NCBI RefSeq assembly: GCF_029846175.1
Contig: NZ_JARWAC010000001.1
Coordinates: forward strand, 248,001 to 312,000
Length of the DNA stretch: 64,000 nucleotides
Direction: 5' to 3'
Source of the DNA: Sphaerisporangium sp. TRM90804
GTDB lineage: Bacteria > Actinomycetota > Actinomycetes > Streptosporangiales > Streptosporangiaceae
Shown piece by piece: positions 49,752 to 60,579 of the stretch. The notes beneath the pieces are model-generated. The model worked only from the letters and a program-made list of their open reading frames with translations, was not told where the DNA came from and did no database searches. A program made the position numbers and the translations under genes. How positions within the stretch are numbered: the stretch's first letter is position 1; every line of letters starts with the position of its first letter.

Positions 49752-50552
49752 TCAGCGGACGGCGGCGAACGCGACGCTCACGATGCACGCGATCATGGTG
49801 GACAGGATGACCACGATCATGACCGTGGAGAGCGGGCTGCGGCGCCGGGGCGGCGGCATGCCCGCCGAGAGCACTCGCGGGGCGGCGGACGGCGTCACCG
49901 CCGGGGCCGTCGGCGTGGGAGAGGGCCCGCGCCGCGCCGGAGGCGACGCCGACGGATCGGGCCGGGCCCGCACGATCGCCGGCACCGGAACCGCGACGCG
50001 CGGCGGCCTCGGCGGCCGGGCCCGCGGGGGCGCGGGCGCGGCTCGCGGCGGGGAGGCCGCCGGTGGCGGGGCCGGCGGAGCCGGGGGCGCGGGCTGAGGC
50101 GGCGCCGGGCTCGGGACGGCCGGCGGCGCGGGCCGCGACGGCGGGGCCGCGGCGCGCGGGCAGACGGGCGGGGCGTTCAGCACTTCGAGGCGGAGCCGGA
50201 GGCTCACCACGACGTCGAGGTCGACGCAGACGACGATGCCCGTGCCCGCGACGAGCCGCTGGCGCCCGGCCTCCCCCGGCCGCCCCGGTGCGCCCGCCTC
50301 CTGGCCGCCGACCACCACCCTCGCGGCGCCCGGCGCAGCGCCGCCGCCCGGCGGGCCGGTGACCGGCGCCCCGCCGGCACCGGGCGCGCCGCCGGTGACC
50401 GGCGCCGCGCCCCGGGCTTCGCCGGCACCCGGATCAGGCGAGGCGACGTGCGGCGGGCCGGACGAGGCGGCGGACGGGAGGGGGGCGGCGGCGGTGAGTG
50501 CGGCGATGGACATGGCCAGGAGCGCCGCGGTGCGCGAGGGGGCCATGGTCAT
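49752..50552 (-). CDS. Proline-rich exported protein with C-terminal membrane anchor
   Basis: 266-residue protein of unknown function. Signal peptide ~1-28 (MTMAPSRTAALLAMSIAALT...), a central part with VAGTGIVVCVDLDVVVSLRL (~100-120), a long Pro/Ala-rich stretch (~130-230) fit to cross the cell wall, and a C-terminal membrane helix (STVMIVVILSTMIACIVSVA) with few residues after it. Hence an extracytoplasmic protein held in the membrane at its C-terminus. ATG 50552 overlaps the DUF4239 stop (ATGA), so the two are translated together. It ends the minus-strand run that includes the MoxR/VMAP genes. Confidence 0.7.
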   Translation of the reverse strand: MTMAPSRTAALLAMSIAALTAAAPLPSAASSGPPHVASPDPGAGEARGAAPVTGGAPGAGGAPVTGPPGGGAAPGAARVVVGGQEAGAPGRPGEAGRQRLVAGTGIVVCVDLDVVVSLRLRLEVLNAPPVCPRAAAPPSRPAPPAVPSPAPPQPAPPAPPAPPPAASPPRAAPAPPRARPPRPPRVAVPVPAIVRARPDPSASPPARRGPSPTPTAPAVTPSAAPRVLSAGMPPPRRRSPLSTVMIVVILSTMIACIVSVAFAAVR

Positions 50553-51328
50553 CCGATCGAGGGGATCTGCTGGAACTCCAGCAGCGCGGCCGTGAACGCG
50601 TCGGGCCCGACGGAAAGGCCGCTGGCGAACACGTGGGAGATCTGCCAGGTGAGGTAGACGCCCATGCCGAGCAGGCCGGCCATCAGCGACAACGGAACCA
50701 GTGTCCAGCCCCGGGGCCTGGCCCCGGCCAGGAACGGGAAGAGGATGACGAACAGGCCGGTCACGATCGTGAGCGGCAGCACGCCGGGCGGCGGGGCGGC
50801 GCGGGCGTCGGCGGCGCGCTGTCGGCGCGAGGACGACATGTCCTGCACCTGGTCGAGCACGTCGGCCTGGGCGTTCCTCGCGTCGTCGGTGGAGGTGACC
50901 ACACTGGTGACCTGCGTGCGCAGCGCGTTCAGCCGCGCCTCGCCCTCGGGGCTGAGCCGGCCCTCGGCCATGAGCGGCCACTCCTTGTCGACCACGAACC
51001 GGACGTAGTCGTGCACCCGCCCCTGCACCTGCGCGTTGGCGGGGGCGGGGAGGCCGGCGGCCGCCCAGTAGGTCTCCACGGCCGCGTGGCTCTCGGTGTA
51101 GGTGTTCAGGCGGGCGGCGTCGGCGGTCGTCCACGGGACGACGATCGCGATGGCGAAGACGAGCAGGAACAGGGCCGAGAGCATCGACCCGGCGTGCCCG
51201 GCGGTCGGCCCGTCGGGGACCGGGTCGGAACTGCCGCGGCCGTATCTGCGGAACAGGAACGCGGCCGCCCCGACGACGCCGAGCGCCGCGGCCACGGCGA
51301 GAACGCCTACCAGCATGACCATCTCCAT
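50549..51328 (-). CDS. DUF4239 (bestrophin-like) membrane protein
   Basis: 259-residue membrane protein with about four helices: ~5-28, ~50-70, and a pair near ~195-240. The soluble loop holds the DUF4239 core (ARLNTYTESHAAVETYWAA, HDYVRFVVDKEWPLMAEGRL, ALRTQVTSVVTSTDDAR). Members are distantly like bestrophin channels, but no transport has been shown. ATG 51328 behind GAGG; a candidate promoter (51388-51415) suggests its own transcript as well. Its end overlaps the start of the Pro-rich anchored protein. It lies 154 bases after the NTPase gene, same strand. Confidence 0.85.
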   Translation of the reverse strand: MEMVMLVGVLAVAAALGVVGAAAFLFRRYGRGSSDPVPDGPTAGHAGSMLSALFLLVFAIAIVVPWTTADAARLNTYTESHAAVETYWAAAGLPAPANAQVQGRVHDYVRFVVDKEWPLMAEGRLSPEGEARLNALRTQVTSVVTSTDDARNAQADVLDQVQDMSSSRRQRAADARAAPPPGVLPLTIVTGLFVILFPFLAGARPRGWTLVPLSLMAGLLGMGVYLTWQISHVFASGLSVGPDAFTAALLEFQQIPSIG

Positions 51329-51387
51329 AACCTCGTATGGCGTGAACGCCCGACCCCTTGCCGAACGCATGCCGTGACATGGCTATC

Positions 51388-51415
51388 ACATTAGGTGACC
51401 ATCCAGGGCGGACAA
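51388..51415 (-). promoter_or_regulatory. Candidate promoter for the DUF4239 gene pair
   Basis: On the minus strand: -35 TTGTCC (51415-51410), 16-base spacer, -10 TAATGT (51393-51388). This would start transcription ~50 bases before the DUF4239 ATG. Moderate match to consensus. Confidence 0.4.
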
Positions 51416-51482
51416 TCGCGGAGATGTGGATGGCAGAGGTGAGATGTCCGCCATCGGACAGCCGGCACGAGGGCCCGGCGCG

Positions 51483-54400
51483 TCAGGCGCGGCCGCCCCG
51501 GGCGGGGTAGCGGCCCAGAATGCTGTGCGCCTCCTTGCGCCGGCCCAGGGCGAGCAGGGTGGAGGCGAGGTTGCCGGCCGAGGTGAGGGTGTCGGGATGG
51601 CGTTCGCCCAGCACGCTGCCGCGCCGTTCGAGGACGTCGCGGTAGAGGTTGGCGGCCTCCCTGCGCTTGCCCTGCGCGAACAGGGTCGTGGCCAGGTTGT
51701 TCTTGGAGGTCAGCGTGTCGGGGTCGTCGTCACCGAGCACCTGCCGCCGCCGCCCGTACACGTCGCGGTAGAGGTTGGCGGCCTCCCTGCGCCTGCCGAG
51801 CGCGTACATGAGCGTGGCCAGGTTGTTCTGCGAGGTCAGCGTGGCCGGGTCGTCGTAGCCCAGCACGCGGCAGCGCCGGGCGTAGACGTCCTCGACGACG
51901 GTCAGGGCCTCGCCGCGCCGGCCGAGGGCGTACAGGCCGACGGCGAACTCGTCGCCCGCCGCCAGCGTGTCGGGGTGGTCGTCGCCCAGCTTCCTGCGGC
52001 GCCGCTCGTACACGACGCTGTTGACGGTGTGCGACTCGCGCCAGTGGCCCAGCTCGCCGCGGCCGACGGCGCGCTTGCCGAGGACGGCGCCGGGCTCCAG
52101 GTTGTGCGCGCCGAGGTAGGGCTGCGAGCGTTCGAGCAGGCCGCACAGGGACTCGCGGCGGCTCGGCCCGTCCGACGGCGGGTGCAGCCTGAGGAACGAC
52201 TGGTAGACCGCGCGGACGCGCCGCCCGTAGTCGCCGGTGACCTGCCCGAGGGCGGTGAGCAGCGCTTCCGGGCGCGCGTTGGCCAGGTAGTCGACGTCGG
52301 TGACGAGCCTGTCGACCCGGCCGGCCGCGGCCGCGTGCGCGGCGAGGTACCGCAGCGTGTACGGGTGGGCCGTCTCCCACAGGCGCACGCCGTCGTGCAG
52401 CTCGCCGACCTGGCCCAGCAGGAAGGAGGTGAAGACGCCGTGCACGGACGCGGCGTCCGACTCCTCCTGGAAGCTCCCGCGCAGGGCCGCGTGGTAGAGG
52501 CGGTGGACGGGCCGGCCGTCCTCGACGGCGTCCACGACGTACGAGCCGGCGACGCCGCGCAACCACTCGACGTCGGCCCGGGTGTACCTCTCGCCCGCCA
52601 GGCGGGAGGCCAGCGGCGCCCAGAACTCGCCCGGCAGCCCCTCCCCCGCCGTGTACGCCAGCGGGCGCAGCAGGTCCTCCACCCGGGCGGCGTGCTCGCC
52701 GAGGCGGCTGGCGAGGTCGAACCGCAGCGCCTCGCCGGGGATGCTCGGCAGGCTCTCGCGCCAGCCCTGGTCGGCGGGGTCGGGGACGGCGTCGCCCGCG
52801 GCGAGCGTGGTGGCGACGATGCGGGCCACCAGGAACGACGGCGCGGCGGCCGCGGCGACGGCGGCCGCGACCGCGGCCACCGCGGGGTCGGGCGCCTCGC
52901 GGAACGGGCTGCCGGGGCGCGCGTGGCGGAGCAGGCGGCCGGTGTAGCCGGCGAGGGCCTCCTGGTCGGCGTACCGGGGGTCGTCCAGGTCGATCACCAG
53001 GGCGGGGGCCTGGTCGAGCCGGCTCACCAGGTGCCGGCGGGTGCCCACCAGCAGGCGCAGGCGGCCCTCGCCCCACCAGACCAGCGGCAGCAGCACCTGG
53101 TCGATCAGGGTGTGCGGCGTGAGGGCCTCGTCGATGCCGTCGACGACGGCGGTGAAGGGGCCCGCGCGATCGTCCAGGGCGGTGACGAGGTCCTCGACGG
53201 TGTCGGCGTCCACGCCGGCGGTGGCCGCGAGCTGCCCGAGGACCTGCTGGTCGGTCAGGCCGCGGACGTGCAGGGCCGCGTCGACGGCTCCGTCGTCGGG
53301 GACGGCGGTCGCGGGCAGGCCGTCGAGCGGGACCTCCGGGCGGAACCGGGGGTCGGCGAGCAGGGCGACCATGCCGAGCACCGCGCTCTTGCCCGACCCG
53401 GGCCCGGCCGTGACCGCGAGCATGGGCGCGGCGCGGCTCGGGCGGTCGGAGCCGCGCAGCCAGCGCACGATCTCGGACAGGGCCTCGCGCCGGCCGGAGA
53501 AGTGCCATCGGGCGTCCTCCTCCTCGCCGCCGCGCGCGAGCGGGAGGAAGTGCCGCCGCAGGTGGGTCTCGCCGTGGTCGGCGCGCGGGGCCCCGGGGCC
53601 GGCCGCGCCGTCGCGGGCGCCGCCCTGGCCGTCCACGCCGCCGTGGAACGCGGGGTGCCGCGCCGGGACGGCGTCCCCGAAGGTCTCGGCGCCCGGCTCG
53701 CCCCCGGGCGCGGGGGCGCCGGGCCGCGGGGGCGCGGGCGCGGCCGGAGCGGGGGCGGCGGGCGGAGCAGGGGCGGGCGGCGCGGGCAGGCCTAGGCGGG
53801 ACAGGACGTGCCGGTGCAGCCTCGCCCAGGGGATGCCGTCGGCGTCGCGTTCGGCGAGCCCGGAGGGGTCGGCGATCAGGCCCGACACCCGGGCGACCGG
53901 CGTGTAGGAGTGGCGTTCGACGAAGCCGGTGACCTCGGCGAGCACCCGTTCGGCCTCGTGGGTGCGCAGGGTCTCGAACAGGGCGGCGCGCACGCCGGGG
54001 ACGAACTCGTGCGGCACGTCCTCCAGCCGGGTCGGCCCGGTCACCGGGAGCGGCTGGATGAGCCCGCTGAACAGCACCTCGGCCAGGACGGTCGGCGGGC
54101 TGCCCGGGAGCATGGCCTCCTGGACGATGCGCATGATGGTGACGTTCAGCGGGACGACCGACAGCAGGGTGGCCAGCTTGAACGCCTCGGGTGTGGCCGC
54201 CGCGTGGAAGGCCTGGAGCGGGACGGCCGGGTCGGCCGAGCCGTTCGCGTGGCCGGGCCCGTGCGGCGCGGCGCGGGCCCGCGCCCCGGCGGGGCCGGCG
54301 GCGGCGCCCGCGGACTCCGGCGGGACGGCGGGGCCCGGCGAACCGGGCGGCTCGGCGGGGACGTCCCGGGACGCCGCGACGGCGCGGACGGGGGGCGGGA

Positions 54401-55474
54401 AGACGGCCACGGCGGTCTCGATGCCGCGGTCGCCGGTCGCGGCGACCAGCTCGGCCCAGGGGCGCACCCAGTCGGGCGCGATCTCCAGCAGCGGGACGAC
54501 CACGCTTCCCGGGGCCAGGGTGCGCGTGCGCCTGCGGTGCCCGGTGAAGGCCAGGTCGGCGTTGGCGGCCGAAGGCCCGGTGCGGCGCAGGCGCCCGGCG
54601 ACGACGGGCAGCGCGGTGCGGTGCCACAGGTGCTCGGGCAGCACCTGCAGCACCGCGACGGGCCCGGCCGAGGCCCACTGCCGAACGGCCTCGCGCACCC
54701 CGGGGTGCCGCCAGGCCGGGGCGACGCCGTCGGTGAGCAGCAGCACGAGGCGGCGGCCGGTGCGGTCGCGTACCTCAGACAGGTCGCGCGACCGGCTGGC
54801 GGGGTCGGTGACGTGCGCGGTCAGCCCGGGTGCGCCGCCGGGTTCGGCGTGCAGGTAGCGCACGCGCACGTCGCGGAAGGCGCCCAGGTGCTCCAGGAGC
54901 CGGCGCACCTCCTGCGCGAGCGGCTCCCACAGCATGAGGCTGGTCGGGTGGCCGTCCACGACGAGCACGACGTCCAGCCAGCGCCCGGTCGTGGGGCGCA
55001 GCACCGGCACCCGGGACAGGAAACGGTGCTCGGCGACGTGCTGGGCGGTGGCCTCCTCGTCCAGCTCCCAGGAGTGCGCGACCGGGACGCGCTTCTTGAA
55101 CGGGCGCAGGGCGCGCAGCAGGTCGAGCCGGGCGGGAAGGCGTGGCTCCCCGCCGAGGCGCACGTGCCTGGCCGGGGCGCGGCCCGCGCCGCCGGGCGGC
55201 GTGGGCGGCGGCGGGGCGAACACGGGGATCTCGGGCTCGTTCGGCGGTTCGACGAGCACGGGCACGACCTCCGCCGGGGCCGGGGGACGTTCGCGTGTGT
55301 CGTCGCCGGTGTCGCGGCCGGCCTCTTCGTCGTCGCCTCCCTCGGCGGTCTCGGGCGCCGTGGCGCGGACGGGGAGGCGGGTGGCCAGCCAGAGCACCTC
55401 GGCGACCTCCCTGGGCGTGGGATCGCCGACCCCGCCCACCTCCCCGAACAGCGCGCGGAAGCGCTCCAGCGACA

Positions 55475-55475
<1 letters not shown>
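51483..55475 (-). CDS. vWA-like / P-loop NTPase / TPR protein (SAV_2336-type N-terminus)
   Basis: 1330-residue multidomain protein. Residues ~130-360 form a vWA-like domain with a degenerate metal site (WLDVVLVVDGHPTSLMLW) and RRLVLLLTDGVAPAW, as in SAV_2336-type proteins. A helical/winged region follows (~415-560). After a Pro-rich linker (~563-650) comes a STAND/NACHT-like NTPase: Walker A TAGPGSGKS (~689-697), Walker B FTAVVDGIDEA. The last ~160 residues are kinesin-light-chain-type TPRs (GDDHPDTLAAGDEFAVGLYA and three more). ATG 55475 shares its A with the MoxR stop (TGATG). The order suggests sensing by vWA/TPR and switching by the NTPase in a conflict or signalling complex. Confidence 0.85.
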
Positions 55476-56465
<990 letters not shown>

Positions 56466-56473
<8 letters not shown>

Positions 56474-58418
56474 CGGCCTGATACCTCTCCTGCGCGTACC
56501 TCATCGGGGGGTCGGAGATCCGCCGCTCGGGGTCGTCCCAGAGCAGGACCAGGCCCTGAGCGTAGTGCGCGGGGGCCCGGGCCGACACCGCCTCGCCGCG
56601 CAGGATCCGCACGCGTTCGGGCCACGGCGTGGACGCCTCGCGCGCCGCGGGCCCGGTGAGTTCGGCGTGGAAGTCGTGCGCGGCGCAGACGTCCCGCCCG
56701 GTGTCCGCCCGCGCCCCGGCGACGGGCCGGGCGCGGGGTTCGAGGGCGTCAGGCGCCCCCGTGCCGGACGCGCACCGGGGGTGGTCGCCCCGTGGGCAGT
56801 CGAGGGTGTCGGTGCGCCGCCAGATGATCACCGGGATGCCGGCCGCGAGGGCGACCTCCAGGGCCGCGCCGGAGGAGGTGTGCCGCGGGGATCCGGCGAG
56901 CACCAGGGCCGCGAGGGTGGGGTCGGACTCGATCCAGCCCTCCAGCACCTCGTGGTCCAGGCGGTCGCCGTTGCAGACGAGCGCGGGCGCGCCGGCCGAG
57001 TCGCGCAGGAAGTGGTTCCACCGCCGCTTCCAGTCGGGGTGCAGCTCCTCGTCCTCCAGGCGCTCCAGGTCGCGCAGGACGACGGGGTGTTTGCGCCCGA
57101 GGCTGGACCACGCGCGGCGCGGCCACAGCTTCCAGGAGTCGAAGTCCTCCTCCATGAGGTCGCGCGGGACGATCAGCTCGACCATGGTGGTCTCGCCGGA
57201 GCGGCCCAGGATCGCGAGCTGCTCGGGTAATCGCTCCCTGACCAGGGCGAGCGCCTCCGGCAGCGGCCCGGCCGGCGACTCCGGGCCCGCGGGAGTGATG
57301 GCCGCCGGCCCCTCGTACCGCCACATGCCGACGTGGTAGCGGGTGTGGTCGCGCCGCGACGGCCGCAGCCGGACCATCACCGAGGACGGCGGGCCGGGCC
57401 GCCGCGGGGTCAGCGGCGTGTGCAGGCGGTCGCCGAGGCCGAGCATGCCGGCGATGAGGTGCACCCGTTCGGACAGGCGCGCGCCCGCCGCGCCGTGCGT
57501 GGCGCCCGCGAGCGTGGCCGCGTAGCGCAGCCCCCGGGGGACGTCGTCGACGGTGCGGGCCATGGCCTCCAGTTCGCTGACCACGTCGCGATGTTCGTGC
57601 ATGGGCGTCTCGGGCAGCGGCACAAGCGGGCCGGCGACGGCCGCGAACGCCGCCTTCGGGTTGCCCGCGCCCGGCAGCCCGGACATGAGCGCGAACATCG
57701 CGCGCTCCTCCGACCTGGGGATGGCTCCCCGGCGCGCCGGGGAGGCGGCGGCCAGCTCGTCGGCGGCCGACGCCCAGCCGTGGTCGCGTCCGTGGAAGGC
57801 GTCGTGGGCCCGGATGAGACGGCTGTAGGCCGCGGGGGCCAAGCGGCGCAGGGCTCCGACGGGCACGGCCAGCCCGCCCATGTCGGTGTCCTCCATGCGG
57901 GTGGCCTTGACCATCGCGCACACGCCGCCGGATCGGGTGTTGAGCACGGGGCCGCCGGACATGCCCGGGGGCACCTCGTCCCTCTTCAGGCGGAGCATCA
58001 GGCCGCCGTCCAGATCCTGGTCGCTGCTGTAGGCGAAGTCGGCGGTCAGCCGCTCGGGGACGGCGCGGTACTTGTCGGAGTAGCCGGCGGCCTTGAGCAG
58101 CGTGCCGCCGTCGGGGATGCGGTCGTCCAGCCAGACGCACGGATGGGCGTCGGGCGGGCGTGCCAGCGTGATGATCGCCAGGTCGGGGTAGGGCCAGATC
58201 TCCCCGCCCTCGGGTGCCGGGGAGGCGTCGGCGATCGTGCCCTCGAACTCGCCGCCCTCCCAGAAGACCTTCACCGGGTCGCCGGGCCGGCCGGCGACGT
58301 GGGCGCAGGACACGACGTGCCCGGGTGCTGCGAAGAACCCGCTGCCGAACGTGGAGCCGCGCACCTGCACCAGGCAGCTCTTCATCAGCCGGCCTAAGTG
58401 GTCCGCCGTTGTCATCAT
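56466..58418 (-). CDS. Trypsin-like protease fused to VMAP-C-type domain
   Basis: 650-residue protein. The N-terminal trypsin-fold domain has a full triad: His40 in VVSCAHVAG, Asp79 in YPDLAIIT and Ser154 in PPGMSGGPV. There is no signal peptide, so it is cytoplasmic. The helical middle (~200-330) is followed by a ~300-residue C-terminal part (VMVRLRPSRRDHTRYHVGMW, ELIVPRDLMEEDFDSWKLWP, LGRKHPVVLRDLERL, AGIPVIIWRRTD) resembling the vWA-MoxR-associated protein C-terminal domain. In predicted conflict systems such a protease is the effector. ATG 58418, 31 bases after the Trypco1-like gene. Assignment of VMAP-C is from memory of the family pattern. Confidence 0.85.
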
Positions 58419-58449
58419 GTGGTCGACTAGCGCCTCCCCGTGGACCGCC

Positions 58450-58815
58450 TCACCCTGTGGAGGACCGCGCCGCCGGGCGCGGGCCGCCGGAACCGCCGGC
58501 CTCCGCCTGGGGCGGACTCGACCAGCTCATGCAGACCTTCAGCGTGGCCGTGCCGCTCGCCCCCGCGAGCGCCGCCACCAGACCGTCCTTGCCGACCGCG
58601 ACCTCGATGCCGAACTCGACGCTGACCTGCTCGGGCCCGGCGCCGGCCACCGCCTCGCGGACGTTGGCCGCGACGGCCCGCAGGGTGGTGTCGAAGCCCT
58701 TCACCGTGCGCACCGCGCCGTCGAACAGACCCGAGTCGCGCGGCCCCGGCTGCACGCTGACCCGTGCCCAGATGGTCTGCCCGTCGGGCAGGGCCACCTC
58801 AACCAGTTGCTGCAT
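58450..58815 (-). CDS. CU044_2847-like / Trypco1 (trypsin-co-occurring) small protein
   Basis: 121-residue protein. Its core (QLVEVALPDGQTIWARVSVQ, VKGFDTTLRAVAANVREAV, EQVSVEFGIEVAVGKDGLVA) follows the trypsin-co-occurring domain 1 pattern: two beta strands, helices, then V-EFG-V strands. Such proteins are typically encoded next to trypsin-type conflict effectors and may regulate or deliver them. ATG 58815 (MQQLVEV). It is directly upstream of the protease gene on the same strand. The C-terminal ~25 residues are Gly/Ser/Pro-rich and unstructured. Confidence 0.82.
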   Translation of the reverse strand: MQQLVEVALPDGQTIWARVSVQPGPRDSGLFDGAVRTVKGFDTTLRAVAANVREAVAGAGPEQVSVEFGIEVAVGKDGLVAALAGASGTATLKVCMSWSSPPQAEAGGSGGPRPAARSSTG

Positions 58816-58971
58816 ACGTCGCACCCCGCCCGTCGTCGTCCATCGTGCAACCGATAGCCGCGTGCCGCCACGTGTAAGGGATTCTATGCCTTCACGGCAT
58901 CGCGGGCGCCCCGCCGGAATTCGCGCGGAAGGGCCCAGGCTACGAGAGACGGCCACGGTGTCTCCAGCGGT

Positions 58972-59433
58972 TTACGGCGGCGTCCCCGGGGCCCGGCGCA
59001 CCTCGTCCAGGCGGCCGGCGGCCTCGGGGTGGCCGGCCTCGGCCGCGCGGGCGAGCCAGACGGCGGCCGATCGGCGGTCGCCGCGGTCGGCGTGGACGGT
59101 GCCGAGGCGGAAGGCGGCGCACCTGTGGCCGGCGCCGCCGGCCAGCTCGTAGAAGAAGAGCGCGGCGCCGATCTCGCCGTCGCCCTCGTAGGCGACGCCG
59201 TACCCGTAGGCGAGCTTGGCCGCCTCCGCCCGGGGGGAGGCGAGGCCGCGGAGCCGCACCGCGTCCTCCTGTCCGGCGTCCGCGGCCCGGCGCAGCCGGT
59301 CGCGGGCCTCCGGCAGCCGGTCGTCGAGCAGCGTGACGAGCCACGACTGCAGGCAGGCGCCGATGTCGCCGGCGTCGGCGCGCCGGGCCAGGCGGGCGGC
59401 GAGGCCCGCCTCGGCGGGGGTGTGTACGGTCAT
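58972..59433 (-). CDS. Sel1/TPR-like repeat protein
   Basis: 153-residue soluble protein of helical Sel1-like repeats (LRRAADAGQEDAVRLRGLAS, AAKLAYGYGVAYEGDGEIGA, AFRLGTVHADRGDRRSAAVW, LARAAEAGHPEAAGRLDEVR), used for protein-protein contact. ATG 59433 after GGGGGAGG, possibly too close to the start. It is the most upstream gene in the minus-strand run leading to the Trypco1-like, protease-VMAP, MoxR and NTPase genes, with 156 bases before the next. It may be an accessory of that system or just a neighbour. Confidence 0.75.
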   Translation of the reverse strand: MTVHTPAEAGLAARLARRADAGDIGACLQSWLVTLLDDRLPEARDRLRRAADAGQEDAVRLRGLASPRAEAAKLAYGYGVAYEGDGEIGAALFFYELAGGAGHRCAAFRLGTVHADRGDRRSAAVWLARAAEAGHPEAAGRLDEVRRAPGTPP

Positions 59434-59565
59434 GGCCTCCCCCGGAGACGGTGGCGACGATCATGGGCGGGTCGGCACCATGCTCGCACCGATCCGGACG
59501 TCACACAGCAGGATCCCGCATTCCGCACTCTTCGGACAGGTCCTCGGCGCGGGGCGGGAGGGCGC

Positions 59566-60579
59566 TCAGAGGGAGCCGGTCAGGTAGCGCTCCGCCAGGT
59601 CGCAGCTCCCCCGCGTGTAGCCCGCGCCGAGCTCGCGGGCGGTGTCGACCGCGGAGTGGGAGCCGATCCAGGCGACCAGCAGGAGGCGGCGGAACATGAT
59701 GAAGGTCCAGATCTCACGCTCGTCCTCGGCGGGCAGGCCGAGCTCGGTCCGGTAGCCGCGCACCCACGAGTCGACCATCTCCGGGACGCGCGGATGGTGC
59801 TCGATGAAGCTCACGGCGGCGGCCAGGTCGTAGAGGTACCAGCTCAGGCCGCAGTCGTCGAAGTCGATGACGGTGACGGCGGCGCCGCCCGCCGGGGCGG
59901 GGTCGACGAGCAGGTTGGCCAGGCGCAGGTCGGCGTGGATGAGCCCGTAGCGGTCGGGGCCCGTGCCGAAGCGGGCCAGGCGGTCGCGCAGGGCCGACTC
60001 CAGGCGCGAGAGCACCGCGCGCGCCTCGCCGTCCACGCCGGCGCCGTCCTGCCACCTGCCCCAGCGCGGCCGGGGCCCGAAGGCGGCGTCCACGTCCCAG
60101 TGGAAGCGGGTGAACCCCGGCGGCCGTGCCCATCCGCGGGCGTGGCGGTGCATGCGCGCGGTGAGCGCGCCGAGCGGTTCGAAGTCCTGGACCAGGCTGT
60201 CCTCGGCGGGCTCGGCGCCGGGGACGAACGCGAACATCACGCAGGTGCGCGGGGCCGCCCCGGGGTCGTCGACGGCGACCAGCCGCGAGCCGTCGAGGGC
60301 CGGCAGCACCGCCGGCGTCGGCACGCCCGCCTCCTCGCGCAGCGCGGTCAGCCAGTCGAGCTCGGAGGCGATCGCCTCGGGTGCGTGGTAGCCGAGCCGG
60401 TGGACCCGCAGCACCGTGCGGGCGTCGCCGTCGGTGGCGAGGAAGGTGGCGTTCTCCGACACGTTGATCAGCTTGACCTCGGCGTCCGGCGACAGGCCGT
60501 ACCGCCGCAGCGCCCGGCGGGCCACCCCCTCGACCCGGGCGATGACGTCGCCCCCGCCCGACAGGTCGTGGACCTCCAT
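59566..60579 (-). CDS. APH-family phosphotransferase (homoserine-kinase-II/aminoglycoside-kinase-like)
   Basis: 337-residue protein-kinase-fold enzyme. Catalytic loop YGLIHADLRLANLLVD (Asp and Asn in place) and the metal site TVIDFDDCGLSWYLYDLA are clear; the N-lobe has FLATDGDARTVLRVHR. Members phosphorylate aminoglycosides, choline, homoserine or other small alcohols, so substrate and resistance cannot be claimed. ATG 60579 with a GAGGAG site. It lies 132 bases upstream of the Sel1-like gene, same strand. Confidence 0.88.
   Translation of the reverse strand: MEVHDLSGGGDVIARVEGVARRALRRYGLSPDAEVKLINVSENATFLATDGDARTVLRVHRLGYHAPEAIASELDWLTALREEAGVPTPAVLPALDGSRLVAVDDPGAAPRTCVMFAFVPGAEPAEDSLVQDFEPLGALTARMHRHARGWARPPGFTRFHWDVDAAFGPRPRWGRWQDGAGVDGEARAVLSRLESALRDRLARFGTGPDRYGLIHADLRLANLLVDPAPAGGAAVTVIDFDDCGLSWYLYDLAAAVSFIEHHPRVPEMVDSWVRGYRTELGLPAEDEREIWTFIMFRRLLLVAWIGSHSAVDTARELGAGYTRGSCDLAERYLTGSL

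What the first reader, a model, noticed from the sequence alone, without database searches (positions are those of the whole stretch)
49752..59433. Coupled trypsin-VMAP / MoxR / vWA-NTPase-TPR locus: a candidate NTP-dependent conflict system
Seen: a Trypco1-like protein, a cytoplasmic trypsin fused to a VMAP-C-like domain, a MoxR ATPase and a vWA-like/STAND/TPR protein lie head to tail, with an 8-base overlap, then a 1-base TGATG overlap. DUF4239 and a Pro-rich anchored protein follow, joined by ATGA. Known: vWA-MoxR-VMAP ternary systems were predicted as regulated immune/conflict systems. Inferred: the protease is the effector, held off until the vWA/NTPase/TPR arm senses a trigger. Unusual here are the fusion of vWA-like, NTPase and TPR in one chain, a degenerate MIDAS, and possible membrane partners.
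Basis: partly seen in the sequence, partly recalled or inferred. Interest (0 to 1): 0.85.

Follow-up and report, generated by a model that had tools for sequence, protein, structure and literature searches.

The report
Actinobacterial trypsin–VMAP ternary conflict system
An actinobacterium carries a block of genes that matches a known class of predicted bacterial immune system built around a switchable protease, here with an unusual exchange of its NTPase module; what it does has not been tested.

Summary
The core claim holds. On the minus strand, Trypco1, trypsin–VMAP-M0–VMAP-C, MoxR and a vWA–STAND–TPR gene lie head to tail, as in the published VMAP ternary conflict systems (Kaur et al. 2020). 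VMAP-C scores 138 bits, the SAV_2336/vWA half 357 bits, and the MoxR has both class motifs. VMAP-C and vWA halves co-diverge (Mantel r 0.84, 46 systems).

Three claims fail. (1) The bestrophin-like ("DUF4239") and Pro-rich genes are not partners: in same-genus genomes they stand without the system, and of 73 VMAP-C places only this one has a bestrophin gene within 15 kb. DNA similarity to the relatives stops at 51,431 and resumes from 59,539, so the system is most simply an ~8.1 kb gain holding five ORFs. (2) vWA–NTPase–TPR in one chain is the commonest architecture: 48 of 68 vWA ORFs. (3) The altered MIDAS is a clade trait; both aspartates are kept.

New detail: the NTPase is not the usual NB-ARC but a STAND like those of caspase–STAND–WD40 proteins, on 1 of 68 vWA ORFs, this one. 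Immune function is untested. New member of a known kind.

The parts
51432..59538 (.). block of about 8.1 kb, most simply a gain, between two genus-conserved genes; holds all five ORFs below
   Evidence: blastn against ten same-genus loci: similarity ends at 51,431 at the latest and resumes at 59,539 at the earliest (59,539 to 59,582 in the loci matched there); no block protein matches any of the ten loci by tblastn at 1e-3; G009 has about 0.2 kb at this place
58972..59433 (-). orphan 153-aa ORF, TPR/Sel1-like by eye; membership in the system unproven
   Evidence: third-position GC 0.98; no homologue but itself in the protein search (2895 candidates scored); only TPR_2 at E = 7
58450..58815 (-). 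Trypco1 protein, 121 aa (start chosen at the internal ATG; the frame is open from a GTG at 58956)
   Evidence: PF19493 3.7e-13, 50.3 bits against cut-off 24.6; NF041216 1.4e-12
56466..58418 (-). VMAP protein, 650 aa: trypsin-like protease (25-169; H40, D79, S154), VMAP-M0 (234-332), VMAP-C (360-630)
   Evidence: Pfam; triad invariant in 55 aligned sequences; model with HtrA/Deg-type protease fold
55475..56473 (-). MoxR-type AAA+ ATPase, 332 aa, overlapping VMAP by 8 bases
   Evidence: AAA_5 1.5e-5; N-terminal motifs WLVYTG and PPWRTF
51483..55475 (-). vWA subunit, 1330 aa: SAV_2336/vWA half (1 to about 570), WD-type STAND NTPase (about 631-1110), TPR repeats (about 1110-1330); overlaps MoxR by 1 base
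   Evidence: NF041121 356.8 bits; module borders from BLAST; TPR_10 5.4e-35; vWA fold

Best explanation
It is a VMAP-type vWA-MoxR ternary conflict system of the trypsin/Trypco1 subtype, most simply gained as one ~8.1 kb block. Shown here: family profiles and order, an intact protease triad, co-divergence of VMAP-C and vWA halves, absence from the ten same-genus relatives, and a different STAND module on the vWA chain. Inferred: the resting complex holds the HtrA-like protease of VMAP inactive, with Trypco1 as its small partner. A trigger bound by the TPR arm opens the STAND module, which oligomerises the vWA chain. The MoxR ring, coupled through the vWA fold, uses ATP to remodel VMAP, and the protease then cleaves cell or invader proteins and stops growth. 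Identity I hold at about 0.97; the direction of signalling (vWA arm senses, protease acts) at about 0.5.
Against: No experiment on a VMAP ternary system was recognised in the paper listings seen (two searches showed 20 of 270 and 20 of 56). PADLOC gives only weak protease and AAA hits. The best NCBIfam hit of the MoxR, MadB, is at 60.8 bits against a cut-off of 475. Co-divergence is also expected of any two genes that descend together. TPR and STAND could equally be scaffold or effector, and Kaur et al. read the C-terminal parts as effectors. Trigger and substrate are unknown. The STAND match in Pfam is below its cut-off.
Confidence: 0.5

Rival explanations
1. Kaur et al. direction: the VMAP middle region senses the invader; MoxR and vWA reorganise the complex, and the VMAP trypsin cuts the vWA chain (for instance in its Pro/Ala-rich linker, about 523-640) to free a STAND-TPR assembly that is the true effector.
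For: This is the model of the founding paper (section 35 part 1). The linker is long; its modelled start is of low confidence (525-548 below pLDDT 50; the model ends at 575). Sister systems keep the core but carry other C-terminal parts (DUF3320 with a weak kinase match, TPR), as expected of swapped effectors.
Against: Here the C-terminal parts are STAND and TPR with no recognised toxic domain, while the protease triad is intact. The 2024 PNAS paper argues for the opposite direction.
Confidence: 0.3
2. Not immunity but regulated proteostasis or complex assembly, as in RavA-ViaA or NorQ-NorD: the MoxR-vWA pair services a cell complex and the protease is quality control.
For: Closest Foldseek match of the vWA half is in a NorQ-NorD complex; the protease fold is that of HtrA/Deg proteases.
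Against: Patchy presence: 55 of 200 family genomes over the cut-off and none of ten same-genus genomes; place in a variable slot; differing C-terminal modules on the vWA chain.
Confidence: 0.15
3. One reading: the bestrophin-like and Pro-rich proteins are membrane partners of the ternary system.
For: Same strand and 112 bases downstream of the vWA stop.
Against: The bestrophin-like gene is in 10 of 11 genus genomes, own included, and eight of the ten relatives have it near the gene at 59566-60579 without a VMAP system. Of 73 VMAP-C places in the family only this one has a bestrophin gene within 15 kb; the next nearest on the same contig is 51 kb away. Contig breaks limit this for some genomes.
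Confidence: 0.03

Closest known systems
VMAP-type vWA-MoxR ternary systems (Kaur et al. 2020, PMC7159879; outline, passages and sections 9, 12, 13, 15, 16, 19, 24 and part 1 of 35 seen)
   Same: Order VMAP, MoxR, vWA; trypsin on VMAP with a Trypco1 gene beside it; VMAP-M0 and VMAP-C; STAND and TPR on the vWA chain. The paper finds apoptosis-related domains, chiefly STANDs, in about 33% of systems and superstructure repeats or scaffolds in about 70% of vWA proteins.
   Different: The STAND resembles those of caspase-STAND-WD40 proteins, not the AP-ATPase/NB-ARC that the paper calls most common; no peptide-processing gene was recognised at 44-64 kb (names partly by eye, no dedicated search).
Trypsin-VMAP systems, mostly of Streptomyces (for example P0122-P0140 with P0002-P0016)
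   Same: Same core: VMAP 50-55% and vWA half 48-53% identical; the eleven of these vWA proteins that were aligned share the one-residue insertion in the MIDAS loop.
   Different: By precomputed Pfam lists and two scans their vWA chains end in kinase-like, DUF3320, AAA or TPR parts; none has both the vWA half and the WD-type STAND.
SAV_2336-NB-ARC-TPR chains (NCBI 'FxSxx-COOH system tetratricopeptide repeat protein' and like, for example P0030)
   Same: vWA half, NTPase and TPR in one chain.
   Different: NTPase is NB-ARC; 32% identity in the vWA half for P0030.
Caspase-STAND-WD40 proteins (for example L166:6151-10401 in the same genome)
   Same: STAND 47% identical over 467 columns.
   Different: There it sits between a caspase-like part (read by eye) and WD40 repeats; here between vWA and TPR.

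Membership tests
VMAP ternary system | VMAP-C domain | tested here: met
   PF20028, 138.3 bits against cut-off 27
VMAP ternary system | gene order VMAP > MoxR > vWA, same strand | tested here: met
   SAV_2336/vWA gene within 2.6 kb downstream on the same strand at 66 of 73 VMAP-C places of the family
VMAP ternary system | MoxR with N-terminal WxhapG and PsWRxa motifs | tested here: met
   WLVYTG and PPWRTF by regular expression; both motifs in 56 of 67 MoxR ORFs
VMAP ternary system | third subunit is a vWA domain with two metal-site aspartates | tested here: met
   vWA fold matches (modest scores); D174 and D249 invariant in 44 aligned sequences. The SxS part of the site is altered.
VMAP ternary system | N-terminal vWA extension motif [D/E]xxx[D/E]xxxa | tested here: inconclusive
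   By eye the sequence has E23xxE26xxW29, one residue shorter in each gap than the printed motif; W29 is kept in 90% or more of 44
VMAP ternary system | C-terminal vWA extension with conserved S, E, R | tested here: inconclusive
   E466 invariant in 44; by eye the R of PGVR is present and the S of ASP is replaced by T
VMAP ternary system | congruent divergence of VMAP and vWA subunits | tested here: met
   Mantel r 0.842, 0 of 2000 permutations as high, 46 systems. Seven pairs were matched by equal contig length only; loci failing my score limits were dropped; shared descent alone also gives such a correlation.
VMAP ternary system, trypsin subtype | Trypco1 or Trypco2 gene beside a trypsin-bearing VMAP | tested here: met
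   PF19493 next upstream, 31-base gap; Trypco1 upstream on the same strand, ending within 3 kb, at 16 of 73 VMAP-C places
VMAP ternary system | acts against invaders | not testable with these tools
   needs a phage challenge
FxSxx/peptide-processing subtype | metallopeptidase and short precursor gene nearby | not tested
   No dedicated search; none recognised among the genes at 44-64 kb
nSTAND1 family of Pfam (C-terminal half) | profile score over the curated cut-off | tested here: not met
   19.1 and 21.4 bits against 27.1. That it is a STAND at all rests on 42-48% BLAST identity to P0017-P0029 and 47% to the own-genome protein.

The most novel reading that the evidence does not exclude
The fused chain is an Apaf-1-like switch moved from a caspase to a trypsin: a STAND module of a kind that elsewhere, including in this same genome, sits behind a caspase-like domain in caspase-STAND-WD40 proteins has been grafted onto the vWA platform with a TPR sensor, so that its oligomerisation now drives the MoxR-gated VMAP trypsin. 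This would make STAND modules interchangeable triggers for unrelated proteases.
Probability: 0.25. Interest if true: 0.6.

Novelty: new member of a known kind. Interest (0 to 1): 0.38.

Why it matters
No experiment on a VMAP ternary system was recognised in the listings seen, and two opposite models are in print for who senses and who acts. A compact case with an intact protease, no recognised toxic domain on the vWA chain, and a nearly empty site in a relative for a clean comparison would let the two models be told apart. If the STAND exchange is real grafting, it shows how trigger modules move between protease systems.

Tried and rejected
Bestrophin-like and Pro-rich genes as system partners: rejected.

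STAND fused from a neighbour gene: the sister system in NEAU-GS5 has a WD40-nSTAND1 gene with a caspase-like start (by eye) just upstream (L019:4184-8581), but it shows no significant similarity to our chain (best E 1.3). A STAND at 47% identity is elsewhere in the own genome, too distant to call a recent donor.

VMAP-C fold: the trypsin part filled both structure lists, so VMAP-C was not tested.

Repeats at the block ends: longest shared word 8 bases, direct and inverted, reached in 43% of shuffles. Phage relatives: none. Plasmids: two records with a 31% match over a third of the protein, its protease end. PHROGs: weak AAA and TPR hits only. The genome-collection scan gave one locus. A class-wide search of 394 genomes at E 1e-40 gave one relative besides the own genome, so the neighbourhoods of the close Streptomyces relatives were not seen.
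Full report
What is there. Searches give, on the minus strand and in reading order, an orphan 153-aa ORF (59433-58972), Trypco1 (58815-58450), the 650-aa VMAP protein (58418-56466), a 332-aa MoxR (56473-55475), the 1330-aa vWA chain (55475-51483), a bestrophin-like protein (51370-50549) and a Pro-rich protein (50552-49752). Pfam and NCBIfam name the parts: Trypco1 PF19493; Trypsin_2, VMAP-M0 PF19916 and VMAP-C PF20028; AAA; SAV_2336_NTERM NF041121, TPR, and a sub-threshold nSTAND1. The bestrophin-like protein matches PF14023; the Pro-rich one and the orphan match nothing.

It is a VMAP ternary system. Kaur et al. 2020 (PMC7159879; sections 9, 12, 13, 15, 16, 19, 24 and the first part of 35 seen) describe the order VMAP, MoxR, vWA, a VMAP-C domain, MoxR motifs WxhapG and PsWRxa, and Trypco1 or 2 often beside trypsin-bearing VMAPs. 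The window meets these. Of 200 genomes drawn from the same family, 55 hold VMAP-C over Pfam's cut-off, at 73 places; the SAV_2336/vWA gene lies within 2.6 kb downstream on the same strand at 66 of the 73. Of the seven others, three are near contig ends. Distances between VMAP-C regions and between vWA halves correlate strongly over 46 systems (r = 0.842, 0 of 2000 permutations as high); loci in which either part scored too low were dropped, and joint descent alone would also give a correlation. Both window subunits have the same nearest relatives, a group mostly of Streptomyces. Seven of its pairs were matched by equal contig length in the search listing, which is an inference.

The vWA chain is a mosaic. 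BLAST against the 120 listed homologues splits it into residues 1-570 (48-53% to SAV_2336 proteins P0002-P0016, which continue as kinase-like, DUF3320, AAA or TPR parts), about 631-1110 (42-48% to STANDs in P0017-P0029, several with caspase and WD40 parts in their listed domains) and TPR repeats. By my profiles, 85 of the 120 have the vWA half and 27 the WD-type STAND, and only the window's own protein has both. The search listed the best 120 of 157 hits from 8000 scored candidates, so rarity elsewhere is not proven. In the fetched loci, 68 vWA ORFs could be classified (67 of the family, window included, and one of the same class): 48 carry NB-ARC plus TPR, 19 carry neither NTPase profile (some of them cut short), and one, the window, carries the WD-type STAND plus TPR (for 67, for L090). 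So an NTPase and TPR behind the vWA is the rule, and only the kind of NTPase is new. Kaur et al. already report apoptosis-related domains, chiefly STANDs, in about a third of systems, and superstructure repeats or scaffolds in about 70% of vWA proteins.

The system is most simply a gain. The bestrophin-like gene is in 10 of 11 genus genomes (own included), at 65-73% identity in the others, and the gene at 59566-60579 is in 10 of 11. In eight of the ten relatives both are on one contig close together: about 0.2 kb apart in G009, and 1.5 to 5.9 kb apart in the other seven, with other cargo between them (two-component genes, oxidoreductases, membrane proteins; labels by eye). G007 (bestrophin at a contig edge, no match to the 59566 gene) and G003 (no bestrophin) differ. 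Nucleotide similarity to the relatives stops at 51,431 at the latest and resumes between 59,539 and 59,582; none of the five block proteins matches any of the ten loci. Where relatives carry other cargo a break is expected anyway, so the cleanest evidence is G009. Loss in all ten relatives is not excluded but less simple. VMAP-C over the cut-off is absent from the ten same-genus genomes (G001 has one match below it). Block GC is 0.763 against 0.728 for the rest of the window, and no end repeats stand out. Bestrophin-like genes occur in 40 of the 55 VMAP genomes, yet only the window has one within 15 kb of a VMAP-C place.

How it may work. Two models are in print. Kaur et al. let VMAP sense and its protease free the effectors on the vWA chain. 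A PNAS 2024 paper (PMC10907252, passages only) lets the vWA chain sense and the VMAP protease act. Here the vWA chain ends in STAND and TPR without a recognised toxic domain and the protease is intact, which leans to the second, but does not settle it. A Science 2023 paper lists vWA-MoxR-VMAP parts near type III CRISPR loci (PMC10910872, passages). Trypsin-like proteases in antiphage or lytic systems have been tested elsewhere (PMC12799240 and PMC13236601, passages). I recognised no experiment on a VMAP ternary system in the listings I saw, which cover open-licence papers only and in part a capped list.

Verdict. It is a new member of a known, so far as I saw untested, kind with one exchanged module.

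Noticed in passing
window 49752-51370: A two-gene unit, bestrophin-like protein plus a Pro-rich protein; in several same-genus relatives the partner keeps a motif like [IV]C[LIV][DE][VL]D[VL][VL]V[SR]LR and a hydrophobic C-terminus (read by eye, no count made). Function unknown; not part of the ternary system.
   Followed up: partly
L167:5425-8516 (own genome, contig 4): A second Trypco1 gene (2.9e-25) overlapping a 927-aa trypsin-like protein without a VMAP-C match: a possible trypsin/Trypco1 system of another kind.
   Followed up: partly
L166:5019-10401 (own genome, contig 3): A STAND-WD40 protein with a caspase-like start (by eye), next to a 375-aa protein that looks like an alpha/beta hydrolase by eye (no Pfam hit), the pairing Kaur et al. 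describe for caspases; its STAND is 47% identical to the window's.
   Followed up: partly
L019:4184-8581: In the closest relative with a genome context (Streptosporangiaceae bacterium NEAU-GS5) a WD40-nSTAND1 gene with a caspase-like start (by eye) lies just upstream of the Trypco1/VMAP genes.
   Followed up: partly
L080-L089: The interval between the bestrophin-like gene and the gene at 59566-60579 is a variable slot in the genus: about 0.2 kb in G009, different cargo in others.
   Followed up: yes
family loci, for example L132-L159: A large subgroup of VMAP systems has its Trypco1 gene downstream, mostly 6.3-6.7 kb after VMAP-C, rather than upstream of VMAP (Trypco1 downstream within 15 kb at 22 of 73 places, upstream within 3 kb at 16).
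   Followed up: no
[not shown]
   Followed up: partly
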